Below are positions 2,512 through 52,244 of a stretch of DNA of 64,000 nucleotides, in pieces. Origin of the DNA: Lunularia cruciata (lineage: Eukaryota; Streptophyta; Marchantiopsida; Lunulariales; Lunulariaceae). The DNA is taken from contig OX419762.1 of NCBI GenBank assembly GCA_948567375.1, positions 3,850,001 through 3,914,000 of the forward strand. Direction: 5' to 3'. The notes under the pieces were generated by a model that was given only the letters and a program-made list of their open reading frames with translations, was not told where the DNA came from and searched no databases. A program made the position numbers and the translations under genes. The first letter of the stretch is position 1; every line of letters starts with the position of its first letter.

Positions 2512-3989
2512 CAACAACGGACACACCACTTCCCGCAGGTACTCCACTCCATCACTCGGGATTACTTCTTCTTGTGTGGCCACTTCTCTTTGTACTTTGT
2601 GTTCATCCGATACCCGCCTTCTTCTCTGTAGTCTTTGTATCGGAAGTGACGCTTCACTTCCCAAGCTTTCTCCTACCTCTTCCTTCACTTTACTCAGCCC
2701 TGCTTCACACTTTGCCTTACGTCTCAAGCGAATTCCTTGCTGTACGGCGATCTTCTTTTCCTTGGGCATAGTTACTTCGTCTTCCAACTGTGTGTTGTCT
2801 TTGGCCACCATCTCGGCTTGCACTTCTTCTTCATATTTGTCAGCCGCCGGCACTGATGTCATCTCTCCCCCTTCATCACTATCACTCCTCGTATCTCTGC
2901 TTTGCAATGTTAGCTCAAGTTCCTCCTCATGTTCCGAGTCTCCCATTTTGAGCTTGGTCTCTCCTTTTGAGTCTTTGTCCTCCAACTCAATCACCATCAT
3001 ACTTCACCTTGGGTTACTTCTATGCACCTTCCGAGGTTTCTTGCTATCTTTGGCTTCTCCTTGCCAACTACTCTTCTTTGATTTTGGAGTGCTCGCTTGT
3101 ATCTCCATGCTCTTACCCGTCTTCATGTAGTATTCATCCGTGCTGCGGATTTGGAGAATGTATTGTTGTTCCTCCACGTCGACTTCTCTTCTCAAGTCGG
3201 GATGGAAGTGAGACACCATTCTATTTTGCTCCGCCAAGTTGAGAAAATTCAACCCAAGGTAAAAATGTAGTGCAAACGGCACGATGTAGTGTGGTGGCGA
3301 CTTATCCCACAAATTCCACACCATCTGTCTTGTCCTCCCATGGAAGCACCTCGCCCAATTTATAGGTTCTTCTGCAAACAACTTATGGAAGAACACCGCT
3401 TGGTGTTTCATCACATAAGTTGTTCTCTCTGGCTTCAAGATTGCCATGAGAGCACTCATGATCCCTCTCTTCACTGGATCCTTGTAACTCTCAACTTTAT
3501 ACCCATTCTCTTTGACGAGAAAGCGTCTCTCACCTCCTGAGTTTCCTGAGCTATCTCTCCTTTCCCTAAGAATGTGGCTCCCTGCTCCGAGCATGCCTCC
3601 TTCCCGAGTACAAGTCTCCAATCCGACTCTATCCAGCGAGCCGGATTTCCTCTCTTCCCTTCTTCCTCGGGTCCATCGAGACACTTACTCTTGATGATTT
3701 CTGTCATGAATCCTAGAAAACTTACATTCCAATTCCATGCCAGAAATGTGATCCGAAGTCGGCTCAAGACTTCGATCCTTGCTATCACATCTAACCTCCG
3801 AATTGCATGATTTCTCACTGCAAATTCGGAGTTCTTCTTTCCTCCTCCCATCTCTTCTACTTTCTCACTCTCTCTCGATTTCACTCTTGCGACTTCTCCC
3901 TTGCGCATTAACACAATTCCAACTCTATTTCCCTTCCCCCGATCACCTACAAGACGACTTCTCAATGGCAAAGGAAAATTACTCGACAT
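2512..3989 (-). pseudogene. U3-encoded protein of family B, N-terminal two thirds (B4)
   Basis: The likely start is the ATG at 3989-3987 (Met-Ser-Ser-Asn-Phe-Pro), 20 bases after a TATAAAAA. The frame carries the family blocks in order: ITFLAWNWNVSFLGFM, the Trp-rich segment WARCFHGRTRQMVWN, then an acidic Glu/Asp/Ser region and an Arg-rich QRLQRRRRV. It is broken by stops and frame changes near 3005 and 3480-3680. It is fused at 2511 to out-of-context C1 LTR codons, giving a chimeric tail. The coiled-coil third is missing. No function is known to me; the protein is discussed at 14052-16623. Confidence 0.82.
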
Positions 3990-4008
3990 TTCGTAGTTGC
4001 AAGTTTGA

Positions 4009-4016
4009 TTTTTATA
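4009..4016 (-). promoter_or_regulatory. TATA box upstream of the U3 reading frame (B4)
   Basis: On the minus strand the sequence is TATAAAAA, just upstream of the frame's ATG. The same box stands in the same place in every B LTR of the window (16643-16650, 26590-26597, 57749-57756, and TATAAAAT at 48187-48194). Confidence 0.55.
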
Positions 4017-4403
4017 GAGTTGTGCTTCTTTGTCTTTTGTCACTTTGAGTTTCTACCAAGAAATCACACCTCCGGCATGCACCTCTCATTGTCAATAAAC
4101 CTTCACGCGTATGGGCCGCCCGTTTTTAAACGGCCCCTTCTTGAATTTCTTGCCCCAACAAAAGGTTGTAAGACTATCTTCGCCTCAGGTTGAGCTCCCC
4201 TTGATACGAAGACATTTTACTTTGGGTTGTATGCTGACAAGGCATTTCCGAGTACTTTGCCTTATGACCCAAAGTCACTTTACTTTGGTTTTCACCCCGA
4301 AGACTCTTTTCTTTGCCTTCTTTGGCCATACAGGCGCAATCCGACTTCTCTATACACTTCTTCTCCTTTATTTTGAAAAAAAACAAAAAATGTAGGCACC
4401 ATA

Positions 4404-7400
4404 GGGCTGTACCAACCAAGAAAGAATGCTTTTCACAAATGGTTTCCTTGTGCAAGCTTATATTCAAAAGTAACAGGAGTGAACATGCATTAGGCATGAT
4501 TTTTGACTGAGTTTTGATTGAAGATTACAACTCAAAGATCAATAAAATTGAGACTTGGTAGAGTGAATTTTGTAATGTTGAATCAAATTTGCTTTGTTAA
4601 TTCATGGAGTCGGGTGGATTGGGTAAGAGTTGCAAGCCGAGTCATCAGGTTGTTGCACAAAATTGAGCAAGGAAGATCAAATTAGGATACCTTGCAAGGG
4701 AAGTTGCCAGGTTACTACCATCTTAGCCAGAAAATTTATCATTTGGAGAGTAGATATGATAGAAAAGTTCAAAGTACCAAGCCAACTCCAAATTACTTTC
4801 CTAGCATGGAATTGGAATTTTAGTTTCCAGTGTCATGACTAAGCTAGCTGCTAGTAATTGTGAAGATGGTCTGAGTGAGGAGGAGAAAAGAAGAAATACC
4901 ACATATTGGACCAAATTGGCCAATTGGAGATTGGTGTTGGGGGAATAATGTAAGAGAGCACACGGGGATTCCTTTCAAAAGTGTAATGCCTTGGAGGAAA
5001 CAAAGGTGTTGAAGGCATCATTTAGTATGCCAAGGAAGAAGAATGGGTACAAGGTGGATACTTATGTGGACCTTGCAAGGCAAAGCATCATTGGAGTAAT
5101 GGATGGCAATGATGAAGCATGAGCAAACCACATACTTAATGAAGCAACAAGCCGTTTTCTTCCACATGCTATTTGCAGGTAGGAGTGTAAATTGGACTGG
5201 TTAATTTTATGAATAGATGAAGTAGATGGTGGGGCAATGGAGGGTGGACCTACTGCCACATTATTTTGTGCCATTTGTGGCTCATTTTTATGTTGGATTG
5301 AACTTGCTTACACTCAAAGAATACGAGAGTATGGTGTTCCACTTGCATTCAAACTTACAATGAGTTGTGGATCCTAAAGAAACATGCTACATGGCTGAGG
5401 TGCATGACAATGACCACTACTTTGCTAGAATGGGACAAGAGAAGGTGATGTTAGCACTAGTCTCAAAGCTAGAGAAGCAAACCCAACATGAAGATGCTAT
5501 GTCCCTCACAATGGAGGAGGACAATCCAGAGACTGAACCTGAACTAAGATATAGGAATGGTGGAATTGTCATCAGGAGTAGAAGATGAAGAAGTTGAGTC
5601 AAACTTGGAGTTGGACAAGGAGTAGCTTATCCTCAAGAGTTGGGATTTGAGCAGTAGAAGCAAAGGCACACATGAGGTATAACAAGATGTTGAAGGAGCT
5701 GATGAGGATGGATGAGATCAAGAGTTCCATGAAGAAATCAAGTATATAGAAGGCATCAATGTTTATTTCATGGACTTGCCAAACAACAATATTCTGGAAG
5801 AGCAAGAAGAGGACCCAAGGATGGTGTTCCAATAGGGAACTTGATCATATCAAAGTAAGAAGCCAAGTCACATTGGGCTGAGTGAACCTAAGAAAGAGAC
5901 CTTTGAAGGACTTTGAATGGGCATAAGGTGATTGTGACTTTGGGCCAAAGTACAAATGGTCATGTCCAAAGAAGAAGGTGGATTGGAGGACAAGACATTC
6001 TAGGGAGTTAATTACTTGCCCAGTGTGATGTGTCCATTGTTGGCGTACCTACACAAGCAATTGTAAGAGATGAAAGAAGAGCATCCAAAGGCAATGATTA
6101 TGGAGGCAAATCAGTTGAAGGTAATGCTTATGAAATTTTGACATGAAGCCAAAGTATATTGGGTTGATGCACTAGTCCAACAATAGAGTTTGATAGATCT
6201 ATAGGAGAGTTATGACCAGCATGGAAGATACTTGGAGAGGCCAAGGGAAGAACTCCTAGAAAAAAAGGAAGCCCTCCAAAAAGATGAAGAATGAAGGAGG
6301 GGGTGTAGACCAATCTATTCCATCATACCACCCAAATCCAAATGCAAGATTAGACCATGGCGGAATTGAAACGGGTAGCTACAAAGAAGGATCAGGATTG
6401 GTAGAAGGAGATGGCCAACCAAGCCAACAAAGAACAATGCCTACATGACCTTGTCAAACATGCCAAAGCTCAAATATCCAAAGCAAGGCAAGCAAAGAAG
6501 GCAATGGAGGAGAAGCATTTGGTAGAATTGCAGAAATTTTGTATGTAGTTGGTAGAAGCGGTAACCCAATGTCAAGAACTCTCAATGAAGGAGGGTTTGG
6601 ATCTGATATGTGAAGTCACTTGGCATTTTAAGGCAATGCTTAGCATTGGAGCCAAGGTGGAACTTAAGGAGGGCATACTTGCATGAGTCAAAGTTGCTTG
6701 TGTAAGAGATAAGAAGAAAGAAAGCAAAGGAGGAGGATTTAAAGAAATTGCTTATTCATCTTAAGGATAAAGTAGATAGGAAGATGATAGAAGTAGGAGA
6801 TAATATTTGCCTTACATTAGATTTATTTTAAATGAATATAGATAGTCTTGCCAGTACTTTGAGCAAGAAGATAGTGAGAAAATCCAAAGTAGTTGAGATC
6901 AAAGTAAAGATAGACTCAACTAAGTTACCTAAGTCATTTGAGAAAGTTAGCATGGAGACAAAGGGGATTCTTAGGCCATATGACTTCAATTGTAGTGCAA
7001 ACTGATGAGGTGACAACAATAGATATAACCATAAAAGTAGGTGATGAACCCAAAGTACAAGAGACATTTGTAGTTGATTTGGGTGAAGTAGAGGTGATAC
7101 TTGGATTGGATCCAAGTTAGTAGTGGTTATAGATCCAAAGTAGTGTTTTTGTAAGTAGAGTCACTTTGTATCTACAATGTCATAGGAAGCAATTGTAACA
7201 ATTAAGTAGTTTAGGTAGGCTTTGTAACTTGCAAGTAGTTTGACTATTTAGAGCAACCATTTGGAGTGCTTTGTATTTAGTAATGAGCAGAAGATGATTA
7301 AAGCAACAAGCTATTGAAGCACTCATTGTTTTTATTAATTTCAAGTTTCAACTAAATGCCTTTGTTTATGACTGTATGAAGAAATTTGGATTGCAATTGA

Positions 7401-13258: not shown

Positions 13259-13921
13259 TGTGACAACCCCGCAAATATCACTTTTGCGGTAATCGGGTAA
13301 GTAAAGTTTGTTCCTGCAGAGATACGAGTCAGAATTGGTCAAATACAAAGCAAAGTAACAATTAAGTTCTTCTTGAGTTCTCCTTTAGTCTCTCAGGTAG
13401 AAACCACACCCAGAAGAGAGTAACAAGCACTGATTTGTAGTCTTGTCACAAATTAACACTTCTTAATCACAAATCCTTCAATTCTTTCCAAACAATCTTG
13501 ATTGTGATGATTCAAGCTCTCCCGAAAATGGCACTTCACTGCAAAATGACTTCGCCTCAAAAATTGTGTTCTACCCCTCCACTAAAGGCACAACTTCCTT
13601 GATCAAAATTGCTTCACATCAACTTTGCACTGCACTCACAAATGCAGAATACTACCAACACTACAATTCCTCTCAGATCTGTCAAGGCATTGCTTCGATT
13701 GCACTTCACTCAAGATCAAACACACAGAATGAAGATCAAGGCTGTGGAATCCAACATCCAACAAACACTCTGACTTGCACTTCAAATTTCTCCAAACACT
13801 CACAAACACAATTGCGAAATTGATACTGAGAATCAAGCTCAAGCAACGAGCACTGCTTTACAGCACTTCGCTTTATCTATTCTCAGAAATAATGAGCACT
13901 GAACAACAATTTCCTACAAAT

Positions 13922-13942
13922 GCCACTCTTAAGTAGTGAATC
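13922..13942 (-). promoter_or_regulatory. Probable core promoter for genomic RNA in B1 3' LTR
   Basis: In minus sense the sequence is ttcactacttaagagtggca. In sister copies the same spot reads tatttaag (55038-55045; 50820-50827 in B3), a TATA-like box lying between the stop codon of the U3 frame and the presumed R region. This copy has a T-to-C change in the box. Confidence 0.45.
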
Positions 13943-14051
13943 AATCGGCAGTTCTAACAACTATACCGTTCTACAACAACTGTTCTAACCTACAGATCCA
14001 AAATGAGAATGCACCTCTTCATATCTGCCCCTTCAAATCTCAAATTGGTTA

Positions 14052-16623
14052 CTAATCTGATCCGATGTCTACTTCTTCCTCGGCTTTCAAACCCAAACCC
14101 GAAGTAATCTTACTTCCTACTATCTTTTCCTCGGGTTTCAGATCTCCTACATCTTCTACCAGATCCAGCAATTCTCTTTCCTGATCTGAAATTGCACAAG
14201 TGGGTAGTCTATCTAACTCTTCATCTTTCGACCCACTCTTCCCTAATGTCTCTGAGGGCAGCTTTGAAGTCATTTGGATTCCTATATTATCTACTTTGGG
14301 TTTTGCCTTAACATCATGCCGAAGCTTTTCTAACTCTATTCTCACTAAGTCTAATCTAATTGCAATATTGTCTTCTACCTCAAATATCTTCCTATCTACA
14401 CGAGTTCTCACTTTAATCAACAAGGCGTTCATCTCGGTGTCTTTTGCTTGTCTTTGCCTCGTCTCCTGCACCAACAATTTCAACTCGTGCAGTCTCGTTG
14501 CCTCAATTCGAACGCTGGCCTCTGTACTTAACATCGTGTTCACTTTGAGGACTATTTCCCTCAATGGCTCCAATCTTGTCTTGCATTCTCGTTCCCGATC
14601 TACAAGCCATTCCTCTCTGTACATCACCAATTCTTCTTTGAATTCGGCCTTCACCGCTTCCTTCTCTTTCTCCTTCTGTTCAACCTTCTCTTCCTGATTA
14701 CGAAGTAATTCTTGTAATCTCTCTTCTTCTCTATATCTCGCAGCCAACTCTCGTTGCCAGAGTTGCTTCTTCTCCTCCATACTCTCCATCACTCAATCAA
14801 GCTCTTGATCCTTCGATGCTACCCTTGCCATAGCATGGATAAGTTCTACTCTTGAATCAGCAATTTGTTGCTTCAAGATTTTGTGCTCCGCTACCTGTCT
14901 TTCCCTTGCGATGTCACTCTTCCTTGCAAGATCTTCTCATAACTCACTTCTCTCTTCAGGTCTTTGATTACCTGACTCCTCTTGACTGCTTCCGCTCGTA
15001 GTACTTCTCTCTCTTCCTCACCTCGGGTTATACTCTTCTTCAACTCCGAGTTTTCTTCTTCTAATCTTGATAAGACCTGCAACACAGTCTTTACCTCTGG
15101 ACAAGTAGACTGCATCTCTTTCCTCTTCTTCTCCATCTTCACCAACAGCGGGCATACTACTATCTGTAGGTAATCTACTCCATTACTGGCAACTTCGTCC
15201 TCCCATGGAGTGGTCTCTCTTCTTTCCTCGTGTTCTCCCAATACTCGCCTTCTTCTCTGGAGTCTTTGTATCGGGACTGACGCCTCACTGCCCGAGCTTT
15301 CTTCTACCTCTTCCTTCACTCTACTCGGTCTAGCTTCACACTTTGCCTTACGTCTTGAGCAAATTCCTCGCTGTACTGCGATCTTCTTCTCCTTGAGCAC
15401 TGGAACTTCGTCTTCCTGCACCGCATTGTCTTTGGTTTCTACTTCGGCTTGCAATTCTTCTTCGTATTCTTCAGCTGCTGGTACCGATGTCATCTCCCCT
15501 CCTTCTTCACTATCGCTGCTCGTATCTCCACTCTGCAATGTCAGCTGAGGTTCCTCCTCACGTTCCGAGTCCTCCATCTTGAGCTCGGCTTCACCTTCTG
15601 AGTCTTCATCTTCTGACTCAATCACCACCATTCCTCGCCTCGGGTTATTTTTCTGCATCTTCCGAGGTTTCTTGTTTTCTTCAGCTTCTGCTTGCCGAGT
15701 TCTCTTCTTTGTCGGGTACTTTCAACGACCTCCACGTTCTTCCCTGTCTTTGCGTAGTAATCGTCCGTGCTACGGATTTGGAGAATGTATTGCTGCTCCT
15801 CCGCGTCGACTTCTCTTCTCAAATCAGGATGGAAATGAGACACCATTCTATTGCGCTCCGCCAAATTGAGCAAATTTAACCCGAGGTAAAAATGTGCTGC
15901 AAATGGTACGATGTAGTGTGGAGGTGACTTATCCTGCAGATTCCACACCATCTGCCTTGTTCTTCCGTGAAAGCACCTTGCCCAATTGATCGGTTCTCCT
16001 GCAAATAACTTGTGAAAGAACACCGCTTGGTGTTTCATCACATAGGTAGTTCTCTCCGGCTTCAGGATGGCCATTAGTGCACTCACAATTCCTCTCCTCA
16101 CAGGGTCTTTGTAGCTCTCAACTTTGTACCCATTCTTCGTCCTCTTTGACGAGAAGGCATCTCTCACCTCCTACGTTTCTTGGGCTATCTCTCCTTTCCC
16201 CAAGAACGTGGCTCCCTGCTCCGAACCTGCATCCTTCCCGAGTACAATTCTCCAATCCGACTTTGTCCAGCGAGCCGGATTTCCTCTCTTCCCTTCTTCC
16301 TCGAGACCATCAAGACATTTTCTCTCAATGATTTCTATCATGAATCTTGGAAAACTTACGTTCCCGTTCCATGCCAGAAAAGTGATCCGAAGTCGGCTCA
16401 AGACTTCGATCCTTGCTACTATATCTAATCTCCGAATTGCATGATTTCTCACTGCAAATTCGGAGTTCTTCTTCCCTCCTCCCATCTCTTCTGCTTTCTT
16501 ACTGTCTCTCAATTTCTCTCTCATGACTTCTCCCTTGCACACTAACACGAGTCCAACTCTATTTCCCTTTCCCCGATCACCTGCAAGATGACTCCTCAAT
16601 GGCAAAGGAAAATTGCTCGACAT
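14052..16623 (-). pseudogene. U3-encoded ~857-codon protein (B1 3' LTR copy)
   Basis: The chosen start is the ATG at 16623 (Met-Ser-Ser-Asn-Phe-Pro), the first ATG after a TATAAAAA. Order by approximate residue: ITFLAWNGNVSFP ~80, NPARWTKSDWRIVLG ~116, WARCFHGRTRQMVWN ~215, EEQQYILQIRSTDDYY ~275, an acidic Ser/Glu/Asp region 335-430, an Arg-rich possible nuclear signal QRLQRRRRV ~450, a long charged coiled coil 500-740, and the tail EEVDIGSD. This copy has a CAG-to-TAG stop near 16168, a frameshift near 15720, and another break near 14800-14940. Sister copies are broken elsewhere, so the ancestor was probably one open frame. No enzyme motif is visible. Additional reading frames are known in Tat-lineage plant elements, but those lie outside U3. 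Confidence 0.85.
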
Positions 16624-16642
16624 TTTGTTGTTGCAGTTTCGA

Positions 16643-16650
16643 TTTTTATA
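16643..16650 (-). promoter_or_regulatory. TATA box 20 bases before the U3 frame (B1 3' LTR)
   Basis: In minus sense it reads TATAAAAA followed by tcgaaactgcaacaacaaaATG. Position and spacing are conserved in all B LTRs here. A start about 30 bases downstream would fall at or just after the ATG, so either the leader is extremely short or a later ATG is used. Confidence 0.5.
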
Positions 16651-17037
16651 GAGTTGCAATTCTTCGTCTTCCGTCACTTCAAGTTTCTACCGAGAAATCA
16701 CACCTCATGCATGCACCTGTCACTGTCACTCAACCTTTATGCGTATGAGCCGCTAGTTTTGAAATGGCTCCTTCTTGAATTTCTCGCCCCGACAAAAGGT
16801 TGTTAGACTGTCTTTGCCTCGGGTTGAGCTCCCCCCCGAGCCAAAGACAATTTACTTCGTATTATATGCTGACACGGCATTTCCGAGTACTTCGCCTTAT
16901 GACCCGAAGTCACTTTACTTCGGGTTTCATCCTTAAGACAATTTTCTTTGCCTTCTTTGGCCATACAGGCGCAATCCGACTTCTCTATACACTTCTTCTC
17001 CTTTATTTTGAAAAAAACAAAAAATGTGGGCACCACA

Positions 17038-17052
17038 TACCCCCTCCCTCAA
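17038..17052 (-). promoter_or_regulatory. Polypurine tract of B1
   Basis: In minus sense the bases before the 3' LTR read gagggagggggta, directly followed by TGTGGTGCCC. This is the expected primer for plus-strand DNA synthesis. Confidence 0.85.
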
Positions 17053-17137
17053 ATGTGAGCGTCCTCGCGCACATAGACCTCGGGTGTCTTAGAAACTTCC
17101 GAGTCTATGGTCCAATATCTCCAAACTCTCCACCCGT

Positions 17138-19526
17138 TTACTCAAGTGGCAAAGGATTACCTTCCAAATCAATGAGTTGCATGGATCCATTTTCGTAAAG
17201 ATGAAGAACTCGATAGGGACCCATCCATCTCAAATACAACTTGCCTGGAAAAAATATTCGGCGATTGTCATATAACAAAACCAAATCCCCTTCTGGTACA
17301 GTCACAGGCTTGATCTCTGATTGTGCCTGACTTTCCTCAATGCTTGTACTTCTTTTGTGGTTTGCATTGCATTGTCTCTTTTCTCTTCTAACCACATCAG
17401 TTGATGAATCTGAAGATCCTGACTTTCCTCTTCCGACATTTGTTCTTTGCACAGAACCCGATAAGTTGGAACTTCAAATTCAACTGGCAATATGGGATGC
17501 AAGCCATATGTCAAGAAGTATGGGGTTTGTTTGGTTGTAATCTTCTCTGTCGTCCGATAGACCCATAACGCGGCTGGTAATTTTGTATCCCAATCATAGG
17601 CATAATTGACAGTCACCTTATTCAAAATTTTACAAAGTAACCCATTTGCTTTTCCGTTAAGCCATTTGCTTTTGGGTTATAAGGAGTCGTCTTCCAATGT
17701 TTAATCTGAAAATACTTGGTTAATGCCTCCATTACAGAGTTCAAAAAATGTGTTCCTCGGTCACTGACCAATTCCAGAGGACACCCATATTGGGAGATGA
17801 TGTTTTGAAAGAAAAATTCCGCCACAGTTTCAGCATCATCTCTGCGAGTTGCTTCCGCTTCAACCATCTTGGTAGCATAGTCAGTGCAAACCAAAATGTA
17901 GCGCTTTCTTGTGACTCGGGTCACTGGTTGAATGGGACCCACAAAATCAATCCCCCATTTCTCAAAGGGGACCAAAGGAAAAATTGGTCTCAAAGGCCAT
18001 TGAGAAGTAGCCATCGGCTTCCCCGTTCTCTGACACGCATCACAGCTTCGGATATGAGCATTTACATCTTTGTACATTGTAGGCCACCAATACCCTGCCG
18101 AAAGAATTTTCTTTACAGTATTCTTCAGAGCATAGTGTCCTCCCAATGCCTCGGAGTGTAAAGATTCAATCACTCCTCCTACTTTGTATGACTCCAAGCA
18201 TCGCCGAAGTACTTCGTCTTCACCCATCTTAAATAAAATGATGTGTTTAAGCTGGTACGGCCCCATTTTCCGGAGAAAGACTGCCCGTTGTTCCGGATCC
18301 ATCCCCTCAGGACAATGGAGAGTATTCAAATAATTATATTCATCTGCATACCTCGTACTTCTCATTGCTGATAAGTGATACAACTCTTCGTCAAGGAACC
18401 GATCGTCAATTTCCCACTCCTGGTCTTGAGTGTCTAACCTGGACAAGAAGTCCGCATTCGAATGCAAAGCTCCCTTCCTCACTTGTACAGTATACGTGAA
18501 CTCTTGTAATAACAAGATCCATCTTGCAATTCGTCCCGATAAATCTGCCTTCTTGACCAGATGTTGCAATGCATAATGGTCAACATAGAAGACAAACTCA
18601 TACCTCAACAAATAATGATGATATTTCTTGCAGGCATACACCATTCCGAGTGCTTCTCTTTCAGTCGTTGAATAATTCTTTTCAGAAACTGAAAGTTGTT
18701 GGTTGGCATAATACATCGGGTAGTCCTTCTTCTTCTCGTCCTTCTGACTTAAGACAACCCCAATGGCCATGGACAAAGTGTCCACATACATATGAAAAGG
18801 GACGTCCCAATTCGGGGCCCTCATGACTGGTGCTTCAACCAGTTTCTTCTTCAACACTTTGAAAGCTTCTTCTTGATGTGCTTCCCACAGATAGTCTTTG
18901 GATTTCTTTAGAAGCTTTGTAAGTGGTGCAGCAAGCACTGCATAGTTTGACACGAAGCGTCTGTAATATCCAACATGTCCCAAGAAGGCTCTCAGCTCCC
19001 GGATGTTCTTCGGGGATTCCAAAGCTGCGATTATCTTAACCTTCTCAACATCGACTTCAATACCTCGGCTTGACACCCGATGCCCCAAAAGAATTCCCTC
19101 CTTCATTGCGAAGAAGCATTTCTCTGGGTGTAATGAAACGCCGGCAAAACAACACCTTTCAAACGTTTGGTGAAGGTAATCTATATGTACATCCCTTCGC
19201 CCAAACACACAAAAGTCATCAATAAAAACTTCAACAAATTTGCGTAGGAAATCTTTGAAGATCAAATTCATCATCCGCTGGAAAGTAGCGGGAGCATTAC
19301 ACAACCCAAAGGGCATTTGATTGTAAGTGAAAGTGCCCCAATCGGTCGTGAATGTAGTTTTATCCTTGTCTTCTTCTTGAGTGGATACTTGATTGTACCC
19401 TGAAAATCCATCGAGAAAACTATAACAAGGATGCCCAGCTACCTGATCTAAAATTGTATCGGTAAAAGGCAAGGGATGATGATCTTTCCTTGTGACTGCG
19501 TTCAATTTTTGGAAGTCTTGGCACAC
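17138..19526 (-). pseudogene. B1 pol: reverse transcriptase, RNase H, integrase
   Basis: This is the main catalytic part of the polyprotein. From right to left: RT with TFTTDWGTFTYNQMPFGLC and the catalytic FIDDFCVFG; the RNase H N-terminus MYVDTLSMAIGVVLSQ; a YSTTEREALGMVYACKKYHHY block; the integrase zinc site HYALKNTVKKILSAGYWWP followed by CDACQ; then the core Asp in GIDFVGP and in SDRGTHF, and the Glu region near 17660. A frameshift near 17630 separates the core from the integrase C-terminus, which ends at 17138 with GNPLPLE. A stop (CGA to TGA) at the 19526/19527 border cuts it from the upstream frame. There is no chromodomain. Confidence 0.94.
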
Positions 19527-21580
19527 TCAGATCTTCCCTGTTTTCTTCTTCGGGACAATGACAAAGGGGGAGACCCATTCACTGCTTAAGACAAGGAAGA
19601 TGATTCCGGCCCCTAAGTACTTATTGATTTCATCTTTTACCAAAAGCGAGTACTTCAGGTTCAGGCGGTATTGTCGCTGCCAAACCGGAACTGCACCTTC
19701 AATCAAATCAATCCGGTGTTCTCCGAATTCTCGTGGAATACCCGGCATTTGATCAATCGACCAGGCGAATACATCCTGGAACTCTATAAACAGGGCAGAG
19801 TATCCTGCCAACTCCTCCAAAGTAACTATCTTTGAGATTTTTAAAATTTTTCCTTCAGTGAGTAACACCTCTTGATAGTCATTGGGGTTGATGACTCCTT
19901 CAACGTGGCTTACTCGGCTTATCCCAAGGCGAGTGGCCATCAAACCCCCTTCCTCCAAGTCAGGTTCACCCGAGGCGAGGTCATATGGATCTTCGTCGTC
20001 AACCTCTACCTTGTAGCATTCCAAGTAATTAACTTGGACTTCTTCTTCGGATTCGTCTGAAGACGAAGACGATGAGTCTTCGGACTCGTCCTCCTCTTTT
20101 GACGAACTTGTTTCCCCGAGATGTGGAACCTTCGTCCAACTCACAATCACCAGCTTCTGATCTTCGGACGAAATGTCCTTGAATCTTAACTTCTGCTGAT
20201 GCCAATCCACTACAACTTGGGCACTATACAACCAGGGTCTGCCGATCAACAGAGGGTAACCAGTTTTTGTCACTGGCCGCAACACGATGTAATTCAACTT
20301 GAAGGGTACCCCTCCAATGATCGTGGTAATGTTCGACAGCATGCCCAAGGGCCGTCTCCTGGTTTGGTCTGCAAACTTCAAAACTTGGGGTATTGGTTCA
20401 AATGTATGATACTCGAGTCGATTTGCAGTATCTTCAGTCATGACATTCAGACCGGACCCAAAGTCAATGGGTATTGTTGTGATCATGCACCCTGCAATCT
20501 CCGCGTCTACCTCGGGAGATCCCAAATCTTCTTGTTCAATATGATAGATAGCAGGCAGGTCCTTCTTTGACATCGACCTCACCTTCTTGAGGGCCGAATT
20601 AAGCTGTCTCTTGTACAGCTTGTTATCTTCCCACAATTGCTTAAATGTAACATTGGCATTTGTGGTGGCCAAGTCGGCTACAATATCATATTGGGGAACT
20701 CCTCCCAATTTGACCGTCTTCGTCTTTGGCTTTGGGTCCGAGGACTCTCCATGCTCCCTCTTGACTTCGGGACGCTTCAAAATGGTGACGGGCTTGTTGA
20801 TGGCCTTAACCCAAGCTTCCTCGGGTTGGCCTACCTCGGCTTGGATCAGACCCTTTACTTCGGATCGGATGTCCACCAGAAAAATTGGAGACTTCGTCTT
20901 CGTCTCTTCTTCCAAACTCAGTTCCCGAGTCCTGAGTAATGCCTCCGTTAATTCTTTCTGCAAGGCTTTAGCTTTAGCTTTTGCAAGGATCTTTTCCTCC
21001 TTGGCCGAAAGAATGGCTTTTGGGCGCTGTCTCTTTGCCTTTCGGGAAGACGACGAGGTCGTACTCAGTTCTTCGGGATCACGCTTCTTCTTGGTGGAGC
21101 GTGTCTCAACTTTCAAAATTTCAAGGTCTGGCCATTCTCCTTCTGAGGTTGGACTCCCTTCTTGAGGTCTTTCTTCCTCAAGAATAATGCAATTTACATT
21201 CGTATCCCCTTTTGGCTGAAGTGCTACACGCTCAGCGGAGGTCTGTACATATTTTACAGGAGGCTTTGGGTTCGGCGGGTGAGGGCATTGGTTGCCCGTG
21301 TGCCCCGATCCTTTACAATTTCCACACATGGGAATGTACCCAATTTGCCTTCTTGGCTCGGGACAATTTGGAGACCAATGTCCCATCGAGCCACAATTAT
21401 AACAGGCTCTGGGTGCAACATTTTGAGGGCGATTTTGGTTGCTCATCGGTGGTCTTCGTGAAGGAGCATTGGGGTTATACTCCCTGGGTCCAAATCTTGG
21501 ATCTTGATACGATGTGCTCGGTTGAGGCTGTACCTCTTGAGTTTGGTACACCGCCTCTTCGTCCTCGTCTTGGTTCCATC
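19527..21580 (-). pseudogene. B1 nucleocapsid, linker, protease and start of RT
   Basis: This frame continues gag-pol after a one-base shift near 21600. It has two zinc knuckles in a row (CYNCGSMGHWSPNC near 21400 and CGNCKGSGHTGNQC near 21310). A Lys/Glu-rich linker follows, then an aspartic protease with the active-site run IPIDFGSGLNVMTED near 20460 and the LIGRPWL block near 20230. The acidic stretch EDESEDSSSSSSDESEEE lies near 20060. It ends inside RT at SEWVSPFVIVPKKKTGKI followed by TGA, where the Arg codon CGA is expected. That makes it a C-to-T change in an otherwise continuous polyprotein. Confidence 0.92.
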
Positions 21581-23116
21581 CTAGAACCCAATCAATTTGC
21601 TACACCGGGAATGCATTACGAGTATTTCATTCTGTGTTGGCGTGGCTGGATTTGCCACATGCGGTGCACCACACATTAGATCATCCAAATGTTGGGCCTT
21701 TCTTCGGTCCTTAGCCCCAATCATCTGGATCTTAAAATCCGAAAACTCCTTGATGAGGGCATCCAGCTTTGTATCCGCCTTATGTACACTCTTGGCTGGA
21801 GGAGTCACTGGTTTCTTGCCTCCACGTCTTCTGACTCGTCTTGGCTTTGATTCTTCTTCAGATTCCGAAGAAGAGCTCAAAGACGTAGAGGATTCGTCCG
21901 AAGAAGGAGAGGTGTTGCGTGAAGCTCTCCTTCTGGGCTTCTTGCCCTTCTTCTCCCGATTTCTCCGGTTACCGGCAGAGTGAGAGTGGGCCGCTTCATA
22001 ACGAGTGACATGTTTGAGTACTTTGTCCAGGGAAGTTACGTTCCTCTCCCTGGCAAAGATTTGTATCTCTGGTGAAAGGCCCCCAAGGAACCAGGTAATG
22101 GCTTGGGCATCGGAGTATCCCACCACCCCCGATTGCTTGGGAACTCGGTTCAATAATGCCATGAACCGCTCAGAGTAGTCTCTCAACTTCTCCTTCTTGC
22201 CCCGGTCCAAATCGTTGACTGCCGTGAAGACACTCGTATCATAGTCAACCTCCCGGAATCGTTCTAGGAAGTTGTTTCTCAAGTCTGCCCAGTCCAATGG
22301 TACAAACCCCTTCTGAGTCACATGGGTGTACCAGCTCTGAGCTTTCTTGCAAAGCAGACTTGGAAAAATTCTTAGTCGATCCGCCGAGTCATGCTCCTTG
22401 TTAGCAAAGGAGATGACTTCGAATTCTTTGATGAATTCATCGGGGTCTTCGCCTTGTTCTGTCCCCTTATACTTCTGATATGCGTGTCGGGTGATAGGAA
22501 TCAAAGTCATCATTCGATGCACTGGGATCGGTTGAGGTAATGTGGAACCTAACGGAACGGAAGAATTGGCTGGAATTGACGCCATGTTGTCAGCCCAGGG
22601 ATTCCAATTTGTCAAATTCAACATAGGGTCTTCTTCGACAATTTCTACTATGAGAGGGTCGACTTCAACCCGAGTGGAAGATTTAGGATCAACACCTTCG
22701 ATGGGTTCTTCAAAATTCCTTCGGGACAACCGAGGAATCGTTCGTAGAAGATATTGACACTAGTCTTTAGTAAGTGTGCGTGCTGTCTTTTCTTGAACAA
22801 AGGTCTTCAAGGAAAAAACTTGCTTTACAGCTCTAGGGGAAGTTGGTGTACTGGGCCGCAATGCATATGTTTGCCCACTCGATTCTTTCTTCTTCTTGGA
22901 AGAAGAGGGAGATGCAAAGTAGCCTTGCCAACCGCCTTTGTGTTTCTTGTGGTCAAGTTCTCGTAGGGCTTCTTGCACTTTGTGAAGGAGTTGAAACTCC
23001 AACGCCTCTCGATCAGTTTCGTCAATGATGGATGGGACATTCAGACATTCATCTTCTTCATGCTGAAGTGCTCGTCTTTGAGCTCTCTCTTCCCGTTGTT
23101 CTTTCAATCCAGACAT
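21581..23116 (-). pseudogene. B1 gag (matrix/capsid)
   Basis: The start is taken as the ATG at 23116 (Met-Ser-Gly-Leu-Lys-Glu), 65 bases after the primer site. An N-terminal Glu/Arg-rich ~120 residues is followed by a TAG near 22758 (CAG in the ancestor). The retrotransposon gag domain follows, with EDPDEFIKEFEVISF near 22440, KKAQSWYTHVTQKGFVPLDW near 22300 and LRDYSERFMALLNRVP near 22170. A basic Ser/Arg stretch lies at 21980-21800. The frame shifts into the nucleocapsid frame near 21600. Gag forms the cytoplasmic particle that packages element RNA. Confidence 0.92.
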
Positions 23117-23180
23117 TAGATATTGCCTTGATACCCAGTTTCCAATTTGGCTTTGTATTCTTCCACTTCTGAGATTTGTA

Positions 23181-23198
23181 TCCCCGGCAGCGGCACCA
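23181..23198 (-). promoter_or_regulatory. Primer-binding site of B1
   Basis: In minus sense it reads TGGTGCCGCTGCCGGGGA, seven bases after the 5' LTR. It closely matches the TGGCGCCGTTGCCGGGGA site (complement of a tRNA-Asp 3' end) common in plant Ty3/gypsy elements, with two differences. Confidence 0.88.
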
Positions 23199-23997
23199 AA
23201 AATCATATGACAACCCGGCAAATATCACTTTTGCGGTAATCGGGTAAGTAAAGTTCGTTCCCGCAGAGATACAAGTCAGAATTGGTCAAATACAAAGCAA
23301 AGTAACAATTTAGTTCTTCTTGAGTTCTCCTTTAGTCTCTCAGGTAGAAACCACACCCAGAAGAGAGTAACAAGCACTGATTCATAGTCTTGTCACAAAT
23401 TAACACTTCTTAATCACAAATCCTTCAATTCTTTCCAAACAATCTTGATTGTGATGATTCAAGATCTCTCAAAAATGGCACTTCACTGCAAAACGACTTC
23501 GCCTCAGAATTGTGTTCTACCCCTCCACTGAAGGCACAACTTCCTCAATCTAAATTGCTTCACATCAACTTCGCACTGCACTCACAAATGCAGAATACTA
23601 CCAACACTACAATTCCTCTCAGATCTATCAAGGCATTGCTTCGATTGCACTTCACTCAGGATCAAACACACAGAATGAAGATCAAGGCTGTGGAATCCAA
23701 CATCCAACAAACACTCTAACTTGCACTTCAAATTTCTTTAAACACTCACAAACACAATTGCGAAATTGATACTCGGAATCAAGCTCAAGCGACGAGCACT
23801 GCTTTACAGCACTTTGCTTTATCTATTCTCAGAAATAATGAGCACTGAACAACAATTTCATGCAAATGCCACTCTTAAGTAGTGAATCAATCGGCAGTTC
23901 TAACAACTATACCGTTCTACAACAACTATTCTAACCTGCAGATCCAAAATGAGAATGCACCTCTTCATATCTGCCCCTTCAAATCTCAAATTGGTTA

Positions 23998-26570
23998 CTA
24001 ATCCGATCCGATGTCTACTTCTTCCTTGACTTTCAAACCCGAACCCGAAGTAATCTTACTTCCTACTATCTTTTCCTCGGGTTTCAGATCTCCTACATCT
24101 TCTACCAGATCCAGCAATTCTCTTTCTTGATCTGAAATTGCCCTAGTGGGTAGTCTATCTAACTCTTCATCTTTCGACCCACTCTTCCCTAATGTCTCTG
24201 AGGGCAGCTTTGAAGACATTTAGATTCCTATATTATCTACTTCGGGTTTTGCCTTAACATCCTGCCGAAGCTTTTCTAACTCTATTCTCACTAAGTCTAA
24301 TCTACTCGCAATATTGTCTTCTACCTCCAATATCTTCCTATCTACACGAGTTCTCAATTTAATCAACAAGGCGTTCATCTTGGTGTCTTTTGCTTGTCTT
24401 TGCCTCGTCTCCTGCACCAACAATTTCAACTCGTGCAGTCTCGTCTCCTCAATTCGAACGTTGGCCTTTGTACTTAACATCACATTCACTTTGAGGACTA
24501 TTTCCTTCAATGGCTCCAATCTTGTCTTGCGTTCTCGTTCCCGATCTGCAAGCCATTCCTCTCTGTACATCGCCAATTCTTCTTTGAATTCGGCCTTCAC
24601 CGCTTCCTTCTCTTTCTCCTTCTGTTCAACCTTCTCTTCCTGATTACGAAGTAATTCTCGTAATCTCTCTTCTTCTCTATATCTCACAGCCAACTCTCGT
24701 TGCCAAAGTTGCTTCTTCTCCTCCATACTCTCTATCACTCGATCGAGCTCTTGATCCTTCGATGCTACGCTCGCCATAGCATGGATAAGTTCTACTCTTG
24801 AATCAGCAAACTGCTGCTTCAAGATTTTGTGCTCCGCTACCTGCTCTCCCTTGCGATGTCACTCTTCCTCGCAAGATCTTCTTGATAACTCACTTCTCTC
24901 TTCAGGTCTTTGATTACCTGACTCCTCTTGACTGCTTCCGCTCGCAGTACTTCTCTCTCTTCCTCACCTCCGGTTATACTCTTCTTCAACTCCGAGTTTT
25001 CTTCTTCTAATCTTGATAAGACCTGCAACACAGTCTTTACCTCTGGACAAGTAGATTGCATCTCTTTCCTCTTCTTCTCCATCTTCACCAACAGCGGGCA
25101 TACTACTGTCTACAGGTATCTTACTCCATTACTGGCAACTTCGTCCTCCCGCGGAGTGGTCTCTCTTCTTTCCTCGTGTTCTGCCGATACTCGCCTTCTT
25201 CTCTAGAGTCTTCGTATCGGGACTGATGCCTCACTGCCCTAGCTTTCTTCTACCTCTTCCTTCACTCTACTCGGTCCCGCTTCACACTTCACCTTACATC
25301 TCGAGAAAATTCCTCACTGTACTGAGATCTTCTTCTCCTCAAGCACTGGTACTTCGTCTTCCAGCGCCGCATTGTCTTCGGTTTCTACTTCAGCTTGCAT
25401 TTCTTCTTCGTATTCTTCAGCTGCTGGTACCGATGTCATCTCCCCTCCTTCTTCACTATCACTGCTCGTATCTCCACTCTGAAATGTCAGCTGAGGTTCC
25501 TCCTCATGTTTTGAGTCCTCCATCTTGAGCTCGGCTTCACCTTCTGAGTCTTCATCTTCTGACTCAATCACCACCATTCCTCGCCTCGGGTTATTTTTTT
25601 GCATCTTCCGAGGTTTCTTGTTTTCTTCAGCTTCTGCTTGCCGAGTTCTCTTCTTTGTCGGGGTACTTTCAACGACCTCCACGTTCTTCCCTGTCTTCGC
25701 GTAGTAATCGTCCGTACTACGAATTTGGAGAATGTATTGCTGCTCCTCCGCGTCGACTTCTCTTCTCAAATCATGATGGAAATGAGACACCATTCTATTG
25801 CGCTCCGCCAAATTGAGCAAATTTAACCCGAGGTAAAAATGTGCTACAAATGGTACGATGTAGTGTGGAGCCGACTTATCCCGCAGATTCCACACCATCT
25901 GCCTCGTTCTTCCGTGAAAGCACCTTGCTCAATTGATCGGTTCTCTTGCAAATAACTTGTGAAAGAACACCGCTTGGTGTTTCATCACATAGGTAGTTCT
26001 CTCCGGCTTCAAGATGGCCATTAGTGCACTCACAATTCCTCTCCTCACAGGGTCTTTGTAGCTCTCAACTTTGTACCCATTCTTTGTCCTCTTTGATGAG
26101 AAGGCATCTCTCACCTCCTGCATTTCTTGGGCTATCTCTCCTTTCCCCAAGAACGTGGCTCCCTACTCCAAACCTGCCTCCTTCCCGAGTACAAGTCTCC
26201 AATCCGACTCTGTCTAGCGAGCCGGATTTCCTCTCTTCCCTTCTTCCTCGGGACCATCGAGACATTTTCTCTCAATGATTTCTGTCATGAATCTTGGAAA
26301 ACTTACGTTCCAGTTCCATGCCAAAAAAGTGATCCGAAGTCGGCTCAAGACTTCGATCCTTGCTACTATATCTAATCTCCGAATTGCATGATTTCTCACT
26401 GCAAATTTGGAGTTCTTCTTCCCTCCTCCCATCTCTTCTGCTTTCTTACTGTCTCTCGATTTCTCTCTCACAACTTCTCCCTTGCGCACTAACACGAGTC
26501 CAACTCTATTTCCCTTTCCCTGATCACCTGCAAGACGACTCCTCAACAGCGAAGGAAAATTGCTTGACAT
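23998..26570 (-). pseudogene. U3-encoded protein (B1 5' LTR copy)
   Basis: The start ATG is at 26570, and the tail is again Glu-Val-Asp-Ile-Gly-Ser-Asp at 23998. The same order of blocks is present as in the 3' LTR copy. The lesions differ: a stop near 26214 just before the Trp of the NPARW block, one near 25927 in the WARCFHGR block (Trp lost), breaks near 25314-25090, one near 24837, and a stop near 24220. The cag codon that became a stop at 16168 in the other LTR is intact here (26134). Independent lesions in two LTRs that were identical at insertion show decay after integration. Confidence 0.84.
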
Positions 26571-26589
26571 TTCATCGTTGCAGTTTTGA

Positions 26590-26597
26590 TTTTTATA
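26590..26597 (-). promoter_or_regulatory. TATA box before the U3 frame (B1 5' LTR)
   Basis: TATAAAAA in minus sense, 20 bases before the ATG at 26570. The spacing equals that of the other LTR copies. Confidence 0.5.
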
Positions 26598-26983
26598 GAG
26601 TTGCAATTCTTCATCTTCCGTCACTTCAAGTTTCTACCGAGAAATCACACCTCCTACATGCACCTATCACTGTCACTCAACCTTCACGCGTATAAGCCGC
26701 TAGTTTTGAAACGGCCCCTTCTTGAATTTCTCGCCCCGACAAAAGGTTGTTAGACTGTCTTTGCCTCGGGTTGAGCTCCCCCCGAGCCAAAGACAATTTA
26801 CTTCGTATTGTATGCTGACATGGCATTTCCGAGTACTTCACCTTATGACCCGAAGTCACTTTACTTCGGGTTTCATCCCAAAGATAATTTTCTTCGCCTT
26901 CTTCGGCCATACAGGCGCAATCCGACTTCTCTATACACTTCTTCTCCTTTATTTTGAAAAAAGCAAAAAATGTGGGCACCACA

Positions 26984-47814: not shown

Positions 47815-48186
47815 TGTGGTACCCACATTTTTTGTTTTTCTAGGGTTGGTAGTGTTTAAGAAACAAAGTAAGCACAGAAAAGTCAAATTTTGTACAAAGA
47901 TGGACAGAAGTAACTGCAAAGGAAAGCCGAAGAAGCTGACATTGGATCCGATGATGGAGGTACTCGGAAGAGGAGTACGCCGGGAACGGTCCGAAGATCA
48001 CCATCTTTGGATTGGAAAACACAGGAAAGACAAAGACCATTTAACAACCTCTGCACATGGCAAGAAAGTACATTTCAAGAAACGGCGGGGGCAGGAGAAT
48101 CATGTCTTGACAATGACCGGGAGTGCACGCAGAAGAGAGAAAATCACCGACAAAATTGACTGAAGAATGACTATAATTTGGGGCAA

Positions 48187-48194
48187 TATAAAAT
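48187..48194 (+). promoter_or_regulatory. TATA box before the U3 frame (B3)
   Basis: TATAAAAT, about 72 bases before the first long-frame ATG at 48266. It is not identical in surroundings to the box in the other subfamily but lies in the same relative place. Confidence 0.45.
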
Positions 48195-48265
48195 TGTGAT
48201 TGCACAGGAGGAATTTGAACACTCTAAGTAAATTTCCAATTCCTTTGAGTAGTTTTCCTATAGTA

Positions 48266-50699
48266 ATGCGTGTCCAGAAGCCCATCAAGAGTGAAATTTT
48301 CCGAAACCCTGAGGGAGTTAGAGCATCTCGTCCAAGAGAGGGTCTGATCTTCCAACAGCGTAGAACAAGAGAACAAATCATGGCAAAGAAGTTGGCCAAC
48401 GCGCTGGCAGTGAGAGGTTTTGCAATTTGAAGAGTAGATGTAGTAGCTAGAATCAAAGTCTTGGTTAGACTTTGTATTACCTTTTTAGCATGGAACTGGA
48501 ATTTCAGTTTCCCGAGAGTGATGGCAAAGATCACTGCCAATAATTGTGAGGAGGGTCCCGAGGTGGAGGGGAAGAGAGGCAATCCAGCTCGATGGACTGA
48601 GTCGGATTGGAAATTAGTATTGGGGAGAGAAGCAGGAGAGCCGACAGGGGTCACCTTCTATCGGAAGTGTGATGTTGCAGAAGAGACGGCAGAGATCCAT
48701 AACTCATTTTTTGCTCCGAGAACTACAAATGGTTACAAGGTGGAATCCTATCGGGACCCGATCCAAAGAAGTATCGTGGGGGCGATGATGGCCATGTTCA
48801 AGCCAGAGCAAACAACCTACGTGACCATGCAGCAAGCAGTCTTCTTTCATCAAATGTTTGCAAGAGTACCAGTGAATTGAGCAAAGTGCTTCCATCACCA
48901 AACAAGGCAGATGGTGGTGAATTGGAGAACAGGCTTGCCACCGCATTATTTTGCACCATTTGCAGCTCACTTCTACTTTGGGCTGAACTTGCTAACCAAA
49001 GATGAGCGTCATCATATGGTGTTGCACATGCACTCCGATTTGAGATGGGAAGCAAATGAAGAGGAGCGTTAGTATACGCTGCATCTGCGAGCGAATGACG
49101 AGTACTTTGCAAGGAAGATCAAAGATGTTACCAGTCCGAAGACAAAGAAGCAAAGTAAACCCGAAGAAGCCAAGTCGTCACCCATACAATGAAAGACTTG
49201 GAGGCTGATGTTGAAGACCGCTAAAGTTGTAAGAGGGGCATCATCGGGATCGGAGTCTGATGAAGAAATGAGTCGCAAGAAGAAGACTCGGAAGAAGAAG
49301 AGCTCACATTGAAAAGTGAGGAGTATGGGAGCAAAAGTGAGGGAGAACCAGAAGTCCAGCAATCGGTGGTAATAAGTGAGGCTGGTGAGGCAATGGTGGA
49401 GAACAGGCCAAGACCCAAAGCGAAGGAGGAGTATCTCGTAGGGCCAAGTTCAAGAGGCAAAGACAAAGACAGTGCCAATACAATGAAGATACAAAGATCG
49501 CGACTTCGGATGAAGGAGCTGATGACAGAGGAGAAGACTCCAGACAAAGGTGACAAGGAAGAAGTAGAACAGTTTGGGATATCGTATTTGACAAAGGTAG
49601 TAACACCACTGCTTGAATTGTTGAAGGAGCATCAAAGAGTAATTCCCCAAGATCGCATGAAGTGGATGAACGAATTGCAGATGGTGAAGTATCTGTTGAA
49701 GGAAGTGCATGAGCTGCAAGAGCATCAAGTCCGAAGAAATAAAGAAATTGAAGATCTTCGTAGGGAAGAAGACTCAAGGAAGAAAACGCTGAGCCTGATA
49801 CAAGGAAGCTGCATAGAGAAGGAGAAGGAATTGCTGAAGCAAGCCGGAGAATTGAAGGAGCAGGCAATGTGGCTGAGCAAGATGAAGGAGGAAGTGAGTG
49901 ATGTGCGCATCAAAAATTTTCATTTGAAGGCAATGATCATCGTGATGGAGCAGGAGTTGGACATCTTGAAGTAGAGTGCCGCCGCAAAAGATCAAGCATG
50001 GCAGAGAGAGTTGACATCCAAGCACAAAGAAGAAGAGCGATTGCAAGAACTTGTTAAGAGCGTGGAACAACAGAATATGCAGTGGTCAGAGAGAAGAAGA
50101 TACTAGCTGCAGAATACAAAGACGAGTTGAAGATGTATCGTGCGGAATTAAAGGTAGAACGCTCTTGAGGATATGAGTCGGATTCAGTAGGAGACCTTGC
50201 GGGGAAATTAAGAGCGATCTTAAGCATAGAGGCTGAAGGAAGATTGGAAGAAGCTTGCCTACATGAGTTGAAACTACTTGTGCAGGAGACTAGGAAATGA
50301 ACAGCCAAGGACGTGGACATGAACACCTTGCTAATTCGGTTGAGAGAGCGTGTAGATAGGAAAATGTTAGAGGTAGAGAATAATGTTAGTCTTAGACTAG
50401 ATTTAGTCAATTCCAAATAAGAGAAGATTTGGAAGAGTGTGACAGTGGAAATGAAACCCGATGTTGGAGAAGTAGGAACTCAAGTGTCATCAGACTTGCT
50501 AATTGACACTTAAGAGAAGAGTGGGTCAAGAAATAAGAGTGTAGAAGGAGTAACCCAGAGCTCAATTGTAGACTATAGTGTAGAAGTTGTAGAATTAGTG
50601 AAGAAATTAGTAGAATCAGTCATACCTGAAGAAGGTGAAATAGTAAGAAGATCATTGGGTTTGGAAGCCGATGATGAAGTCGACATTGGATTGGGATAG
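48266..50699 (+). pseudogene. U3-encoded protein, diverged copy (B3)
   Basis: The ATG at 48266 (Met-Arg-Val-Gln-Lys-Pro) starts a frame that shares the block order of the B1 copies: ITFLAWNWNFSFPRVM near 48478, RGNPARWTESDWKLVLGREA near 48573, NGYKVESYRDPIQRSIVGAM near 48728, FFHQMFARVPVN near 48840, a 220-codon coiled coil 49309-49974 (Lys/Glu-rich, heptad-like), and the tail DEVDIGLG ending at a TAG (50697). Single stops or shifts lie near 48430, 48879, 49070-49300, 49972 and 50165. Blocks are retained while the rest has changed much, the pattern expected of past selection on protein. Confidence 0.83.
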
Positions 50700-50819
50700 A
50701 AGTCAATTTTGAGATAGGAAAGGACAAATATGAAATGATAGTTTGTCACTTGGGATCTATAGGTAGGAAAAGATGTTAGGAAGCGGTGTCTAGGTAGGCG
50801 AGTCTACCGTTTGCTTCAG

Positions 50820-50827
50820 TATTTAAG
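50820..50827 (+). promoter_or_regulatory. Probable core promoter for genomic RNA (B3)
   Basis: TATTTAAG lies 120 bases after the U3-frame stop; the same box lies at the same place in B2. Confidence 0.5.
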
Positions 50828-52240: not shown

Positions 52241-52244
52241 TTTT

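What the first reader, a model, noticed from the sequence alone, without database searches (positions are those of the whole stretch)
13259..26983. A large protein-coding frame lies entirely inside the U3 part of a gypsy LTR
Both LTRs of B1 (14052-16623, 23998-26570), the solo LTR B2 (55163-57729) and the diverged LTR B3 (48266-50699) carry the same ~800-860 codon frame, between the U3 start and the core promoter. Each copy is broken at different bases, so one open ancestral frame is likely. The protein has a conserved N-terminal domain, an acidic middle, an Arg-rich patch and a long coiled coil. It has no catalytic motif and is not gag (gag is separate at 21581-23116). Extra frames in plant gypsy elements are known next to gag or after pol. 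A frame this large within U3, which would sit at both ends of the provirus and in every solo LTR, is unusual and I know of no described case.
Basis: partly seen in the sequence, partly recalled or inferred. Interest (0 to 1): 0.88.

Follow-up and report, generated by a model that had tools for sequence, protein, structure and literature searches.

The report
Selected protein gene inside retrotransposon LTRs
The long end repeats of two abundant jumping-gene families in a liverwort-like plant contain a large protein-coding frame that natural selection kept intact while the elements were active; it starts right after a conserved promoter motif in the repeat, so even an isolated repeat could act as a small gene.

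Summary
Three independent insertions carry it inside LTRs: B1 (TSD CTATG), solo LTR B2 (GGGGA), solo LTR B3 (CTCTC). In 40 B-type LTRs, variants private to one copy look neutral (omega 0.91); variants shared by copies show purifying selection (0.65-0.71; 0.39-0.47 without C>T/G>A), in the proposed reading phase only. In 13 B3-type LTRs shared variants give 0.25-0.55. Of the 63 best-scored genome places, 2 are open for all 878 codons.

Placement in U3 is probably wrong. The only TATAWAW motif in 41 B-type LTRs lies 27 nt before the first conserved ATG, in frame, intact in 40 of 40 copies that keep the site. B3-type LTRs have theirs at the same place (13 of 14). The frame therefore most likely lies downstream of the transcription start (R/U5), as first cistron of the genomic RNA. 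No known domain or relative was found. Coding inside an LTR has a retroviral precedent (MMTV sag); I found none for a plant element in the papers searched. Function as a trans-acting accessory factor is inferred.

The parts
13259..26983 (-). B1, full-length Ty3/gypsy element with 3.8-kb LTRs
   Evidence: LTR pair 95.4% identical and TSD CTATG; RT, RNase H, integrase in the ORF 17622-19526 and gag in the ORF 21581-22729
13259..17037 (-). B1 3' LTR, 3779 nt
   Evidence: preceded by a purine tract ending GGGGGTA
23208..26983 (-). B1 5' LTR, 3776 nt
16644..16650 (-). TATA motif of the 3' LTR, LTR position 388
   Evidence: only TATAWAW in any of 41 LTR copies, intact in 40 of 40 that keep the site; inside a 14-nt invariant run
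26591..26597 (-). TATA motif of the 5' LTR
14052..16623 (-). LTR frame, 3' LTR copy, first conserved ATG to stop, broken in this copy
23998..26570 (-).
54355..58142 (-). B2, solo LTR with TSD GGGGA
57750..57756 (-). TATA motif of B2
55163..57729 (-).
47815..51492 (+). B3, solo LTR of a second family, TSD CTCTC
   Evidence: 150 of 150 scored genome places carry a relative at 85-100% identity
48187..48193 (+). TATA motif of B3, LTR position 373
   Evidence: only TATAWAW of this LTR; intact in 13 of 14 family copies that reach the site
48266..50690 (+). LTR frame in B3, from the first ATG after the TATA motif; 44% identical to B in its N- and C-terminal parts, 29-32% in between; broken in this copy
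2512..4401 (-). Diverged B-type LTR fragment (84% identical) with a TATA motif at 4010-4016 and the N-terminal part of the frame; it also has a second TATAWAW at 3358-3364
4648..6849 (+). Decayed relative of the frame (38-43% identical)

Best explanation
Two related high-copy families of gypsy elements in a liverwort-like plant carry an additional gene inside the LTR. It follows the LTR promoter directly: TATA motif, then the first conserved ATG, in frame, 27 nt (B) or 79 nt (B3) further on. It would be the 5'-proximal cistron of the element's RNA and encode an orphan protein of about 860 residues: a conserved N-terminal part, acidic linker, basic patch and coiled-coil stretch. Because promoter and frame are both inside the LTR, reverse transcription places a complete unit at both ends of every provirus and leaves one in every solo LTR. 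I infer that the protein is a trans-acting, probably nuclear accessory factor of the element (RNA handling, regulation or relief of silencing). SHOWN: frame, LTR location, independent insertions, selection on shared but not private variants in B, TATA and ATG conservation. INFERRED: transcription start, translation, nuclear location, function.
For: LTR location: TSDs and LTR pair; same-strand pairs 9.94 kb apart in B (two) and 9.85 and 9.89 kb in B3. Selection in B, 40 copies: singletons N385/S149, omega 0.91, z -1.0; variants in 2-5 copies omega 0.71 (z -3.1), in 6-20 copies 0.65 (z -3.3), stops there 5 against 12.6 expected; without C>T/G>A 0.39 (z -4.3) and 0.47 (z -2.5). Shifted phases: 0.79-3.5 for shared variants, none below 1 with z under -0.5. 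Deletions shared by copies: 0 in the frame (2634 columns), 7 in the flanks (1146 columns). B3 family, 13 copies: variants in 3-7 copies omega 0.36 (z -11), stops 6 against 20; without C>T/G>A 0.25; variants in 2 copies 0.55 and 0.49. B versus B3: dN 0.41, dS 2.50 over 330 codons. On a nucleotide-guided alignment differences at codon positions 1/2/3 are 53/36/97 (N-terminal) and 48/36/66 (C-terminal), but 46/38/39 beyond the frame. Open frames exist. Promoter. A neighbouring gypsy family without the frame (C) has a TATA motif near LTR position 480 in 3 of 3 copies.
Against: No RNA or protein data. None of 41 aligned copies is unbroken. Stop gains among variants in 2-5 B copies are not depleted (33, expected 21.6), nor among variants in 2 B3 copies (15, expected 14.4). 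B transversions alone are not significant (omega 0.78 and 0.46, z -0.7 and -1.7). Singletons in the B3 family are also below 1 (0.74 and 0.59). In B the ATG is only 27 nt after the TATA motif, so the start site could fall at or after it; then the second in-frame ATG (position 553, 40 copies) would start the protein. Out-of-frame ATGs lie 5 or 8 nt before position 415 in 7 and 6 copies. A TATA match per LTR is expected by chance at 0.36; its weight rests on conservation and position. How gag is reached more than 3 kb downstream is unexplained; a simple consensus scan of the LTRs found no splice site shared by both families (internal region not scanned). The polyadenylation site, hence the R/U5 border, is unknown. 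Nothing in sequence or fold identifies the function.
Confidence: 0.72

Rival explanations
1. One reading: the frame lies in a long U3, upstream of a TATA-less genomic promoter near the LTR's 3' end, and is expressed from the 3' LTR, as MMTV sag is, with the TATA motif as its private promoter.
For: The last part of the LTR, after the frame, is the best conserved non-coding part between B and B3 (74 differences in the last 533 aligned sites) and could hold a promoter; Sag is expressed from the 3' LTR (PMC3026287).
Against: No TATAWAW lies after the frame in any of 41 B copies; the one TATA motif sits at a distance that fits a short U3, and neighbouring family C has a similar spacing without the frame.
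Confidence: 0.2
2. The open frame is not a gene but a by-product of composition or RNA structure of a purine-rich LTR.
For: The LTR is purine-rich (A 0.33, G 0.29), which favours open frames and charged, coiled-coil-like translations; no database relative.
Against: The other five phases hold 20-72 stops; codon-phase-specific constraint in two families and between them.
Confidence: 0.02
3. The frame was captured from a host gene or another transposon by an ancestor of both families.
For: It was not found in the C-family LTR segments of the window, and pol relatives in Riccia are found where frame relatives are not.
Against: No source gene or transposon domain found; predicted proteomes may leave LTR frames out. 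It concerns origin, and is compatible with the best explanation.
Confidence: 0.35

Closest known systems
MMTV sag (superantigen encoded in the LTR)
   Same: A protein frame inside the LTR, with exceptionally long LTRs for that reason (PMC3026287, passages).
   Different: [quoted passage not shown] Here the frame follows the LTR's own TATA motif. No sequence relation was tested.
ORF0 of rice Retrosat2, RIRE3 and RIRE8
   Same: Extra, divergent frame of unknown function upstream of gag-pol in gypsy elements with LTRs of about 3 kb or more (PMC3485330, passages).
   Different: ORF0 is described as a separate frame upstream of ORF1; [quoted passage not shown]
Additional ORFs (aORFs) of plant LTR retrotransposons (Grande, RIRE2, Retand, PvRetro13, env-like)
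   Same: Non-gag-pol frames kept across copies; the Grande product localises to the nucleus (PMC7264820, passages).
   Different: That review places them in the internal region, most often between pol and the 3' LTR; four phrases for LTR-internal ORFs had no occurrence there.
[not shown]
   Same: Liverwort gypsy elements of the Tat lineage without additional RNase H (PMC10508981, passages); the B1 pol ORF shows a single RNase H and its best match is Riccia.
   Different: No tree was built here; no LTR frame is mentioned in the passages seen.

Membership tests
Ty3/gypsy LTR retrotransposon | gag, then RT-RNase H-integrase order, flanked by LTRs with TSD | tested here: met
Plant non-chromovirus (Tat/Athila) lineage | Primer-binding site not of tRNA-Met type | tested here: inconclusive
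   PBS reads TGGTGCCGCTGCCGGGGAT; likeness to tRNA-Asp is recalled, no tRNA was compared; non-chromoviruses do not use tRNA-Met (PMC6317226, passages)
Plant non-chromovirus (Tat/Athila) lineage | RT phylogeny | not tested
   no tree built
Additional ORF of plant LTR retrotransposons | Conserved non-gag-pol frame present in most copies | tested here: met
Additional ORF of plant LTR retrotransposons | Located in the internal region | tested here: not met
   inside the LTR of B1, B2 and B3
LTR-encoded accessory gene (MMTV sag type) | Frame within the LTR | tested here: met
LTR-encoded accessory gene (MMTV sag type) | Located in U3, upstream of the genomic promoter | tested here: inconclusive
   the only TATAWAW lies upstream of the frame; transcription start not measured

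The most novel reading that the evidence does not exclude
Each LTR is a self-contained gene (promoter, first-cistron frame, probable 3' end). Solo LTRs, normally seen as dead leftovers, would then be a dispersed multigene family that makes a trans-acting protein, for example one that counters silencing, for the remaining full-length elements of two families.
Probability: 0.3. Interest if true: 0.88.

Novelty: new variant of a known kind. Interest (0 to 1): 0.72.

Why it matters
It puts a large, selection-maintained protein gene where plant elements are thought to hold only regulatory sequence. If transcription starts before it, LTR anatomy (U3 about 0.4 kb, R/U5 over 3 kb), the first cistron of the RNA and the meaning of solo LTRs all differ from the textbook picture. 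It would also explain why these LTRs are so long, as in MMTV.

Tried and rejected
Pfam scans of frame pieces, protein database searches (the 7995 candidates sharing most words were scored, none at E 0.01, residues 50-330: 567 candidates, none at E 0.1), PDB sequences and Rfam gave nothing. Weak sub-threshold Pfam hits (ELL, YqhG and others) were discarded. I suspected a plant-transposon domain (PF20167) from memory; the genome search for it did not complete, and hmmscan did not report it. The AlphaFold2 model of the N-terminal part was useless (mean pLDDT 38), so no fold search was made. Splice-site scan of the LTRs: a donor-like site at B position 679 (38 of 41 copies) and acceptor-like sites in B3, none shared by both families. 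AATAAA at LTR position 31 (41 of 41 B copies) is not at that place in B3, so no polyadenylation claim is made. Short C-terminal fragments of other families (70-86 codons) gave omega 0.52-0.69, weaker than B versus B3. Dropped rows: L046 (86% outlier) from the B selection counts; L048 and L054 (rearranged) from the B3 counts. Sampling: the B copies are the best hits of one DNA search plus the window's; the B3 copies are 14 of 150 listed places, chosen by rank, open-frame length or pairing, plus B3 itself. Neither is random.

Full report
WHAT IS THERE. The window is C12:3850001-3914000 of a 565.8-Mb genome. The 634-aa pol ORF of B1 has its best protein match in Riccia sorocarpa (71% identity over the whole query; the four best matches are all Riccia, 67-71%), so the host is probably a liverwort or close to one. 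B1 is a complete gypsy element on the minus strand: LTRs 23208-26983 and 13259-17037, TSD CTATG, gag (PF03732), then RT, RNase H and integrase. B2 and B3 are solo LTRs with their own TSDs, GGGGA and CTCTC. So the window holds three independent insertions. A fourth, diverged LTR fragment lies at 2512-4401.

THE FRAME. One frame runs through each LTR. In the copy used as frame reference (L009) it is 878 codons from stop to stop with a single stop inside; from the first conserved ATG it is about 857 codons. In 41 LTR copies the frame has 4.3 stops on average, the other phases 20-72. The 175 stops lie at 68 different codons. The most widely shared stop, in 14 of 41 copies, is the only stop position upstream of the ATG, which is what a real start codon predicts. 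Of 63 scored genome places, 7 (the query copy among them) have no stop in the 709 matched codons and 2 are open over the full 878.

SELECTION. Copies that have landed decay neutrally, so selection must be read from variants inherited by several copies. In B (40 copies, L046 left out) private variants are neutral: N 385, S 149, stop 30, expected 393, 139, 32.6. Variants shared by 2-5 copies give omega 0.71 and by 6-20 copies 0.65; with C>T and G>A removed, because methylated C mutates repeatedly, 0.39 and 0.47. Transversions alone are too few to be significant (0.78 and 0.46). The two shifted reading phases serve as controls and show no significant deficit. Stop gains in the 2-5 class are not depleted (33 seen, 21.6 expected), which I attribute to recurrent C>T/G>A changes, since without them 2 are seen and 4.4 expected; in the 6-20 class 5 are seen and 12.6 expected. 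No deletion is shared by copies inside the frame, seven are in the shorter flanks (insertions not counted). An earlier run with a context-dependent mutation spectrum gave 0.96-1.12 for singletons and 0.53-0.75 for variants in three or more copies. In the second family (13 of 15 copies) the signal is stronger: variants in 3-7 copies give N 196, S 240, stop 6 against 292, 129, 20 expected (omega 0.36, z -11), and 0.25 without C>T/G>A. Variants in 2 copies give 0.55 and 0.49 with no stop depletion (15, expected 14.4), and singletons are also constrained (0.74 and 0.59), which I read as lineage changes in an older, thinly sampled family. Between the families dN is 0.41 and dS 2.50 over 330 N-terminal codons. 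That alignment was protein-guided, dS is near saturation, and several other segments had dS beyond estimation. A nucleotide-guided alignment gives differences of 53, 36 and 97 at codon positions 1, 2 and 3 in the N-terminal part, 48, 36 and 66 in the C-terminal part, and 46, 38 and 39 beyond the frame.

WHERE THE PROMOTER IS. TATAAAAAT lies at LTR position 388, the first conserved ATG at 415. The motif is intact in 40 of 40 B copies that keep the site (L042 has lost it by deletion) and is the only TATAWAW in any of the 41 LTRs. It lies in a 14-nt stretch without a single difference, among the three longest such stretches of the LTR. The next conserved ATG, at 553, is in frame too; 6 and 7 copies have an out-of-frame ATG at 407 or 410. 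In the B3 family the motif is at position 373, intact in 13 of 14 copies reaching it, with one other TATAWAW in one rearranged copy. In the window's B3 the first two ATGs after it are in frame. The 84%-identical fragment at 2512-4401 keeps the motif but has a second TATAWAW within the frame. The neighbouring gypsy family C (LTR start 51551), in which the frame was not found and whose two copies differ about equally at the three codon positions over most of the stretch, has a TATAWAW near 480 in 3 of 3 copies, one of which has two more. I conclude that U3 is about 0.4 kb and that the frame lies after the start site. This is an inference from sequence.

GENERALITY. B3-type frames were found on the eight contigs of 60 Mb or more seen here and on small ones: 150 of 150 scored places match at 85-100%, from 18842 candidates (scored places are the best ones, so this is a lower bound and not a census). 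Same-strand pairs 9.85 and 9.89 kb apart, with a GGGGTA tract before the downstream copy (L048, L050), show that the frame sits in both LTRs of full-length B3-type elements too.

THE PROTEIN. N-terminal part conserved between families (62% over residues 69-217); residues 351-400 carry 19 acidic and 3 basic residues; RRRR at 461; a heptad pattern at 480-600 reached by 1 of 200 shuffles, and in the matching part of another copy by none of 200, but not in the stretches after it. No Pfam, PDB or protein-database relative. The failed fold says nothing either way.

HOW IT PROBABLY WORKS. RNA starting after this TATA motif would carry the frame as its first cistron, with gag-pol more than 3 kb further on. 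Acidic linker, basic patches and coiled coil suggest a self-associating nuclear factor; this is a guess from composition. Maintenance by selection across many rounds of transposition indicates that copies with a working frame left more descendants. Solo LTRs would keep promoter and frame together.

WHAT IS KNOWN. MMTV's LTRs are long because the 3' LTR encodes Sag (PMC3026287, passages). Plant elements with extra frames are reviewed in PMC7264820 (passages), which places them in the internal region; Retrosat2 ORF0 is upstream of gag-pol (PMC3485330, passages). Tat-lineage elements occur in Marchantia, where no additional RNase H was detected (PMC10508981, passages). Text searches for an ORF inside a plant LTR showed no case: no hit, 20 of 103 papers listed, 3 of 3, 15 of 106, 1 of 1 (PMC1560396, a false match). 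Listings were judged by title and start of abstract. The library holds open-licence papers only, so a report elsewhere cannot be excluded.

Noticed in passing
window 13259-14052 and 50691-51492: The end of the LTR, after the frame, is more alike between B and B3 (74 differences in the last 533 aligned sites) than third codon positions of the frame (97 of 194 differ in an N-terminal stretch). Either a constrained RNA leader or exchange between families.
   Followed up: partly
window 13259-26983 and 54355-58142: B1 and B2 are inserted in two different copies of gypsy family C, at places about 133 nt apart in C, upstream of its zinc-knuckle and protease frame: chance or target preference.
   Followed up: no
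window 51551-54221, 26984-29612, 62474-64000: Family C, a gypsy family whose LTR starts TGTAACACCC, with a shared TATA motif near LTR position 480 and no sign of the LTR frame; used as a control. Its LTR end was not located.
   Followed up: partly
window 11622-11879 and 38633-38842: Two fragments with only the C-terminal 70-86 residues of the frame (51-61% identical), in stretches related to each other over about 1.07 kb: traces of further families.
   Followed up: no
LTR positions 28-44 of family B: The longest invariant stretch of the LTR (17 nt, contains AATAAA) lies near the start of U3, not around the frame.
   Followed up: no
window 1-1025 and 42598-44108: Repeat arrays (spacings 105 and 209 nt in the second), related to each other in inverted orientation.
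   Followed up: no
L048:2787-3269: A second stretch matching the frame's N-terminal part within one B3-type LTR locus, probably a nested or duplicated LTR.
   Followed up: no
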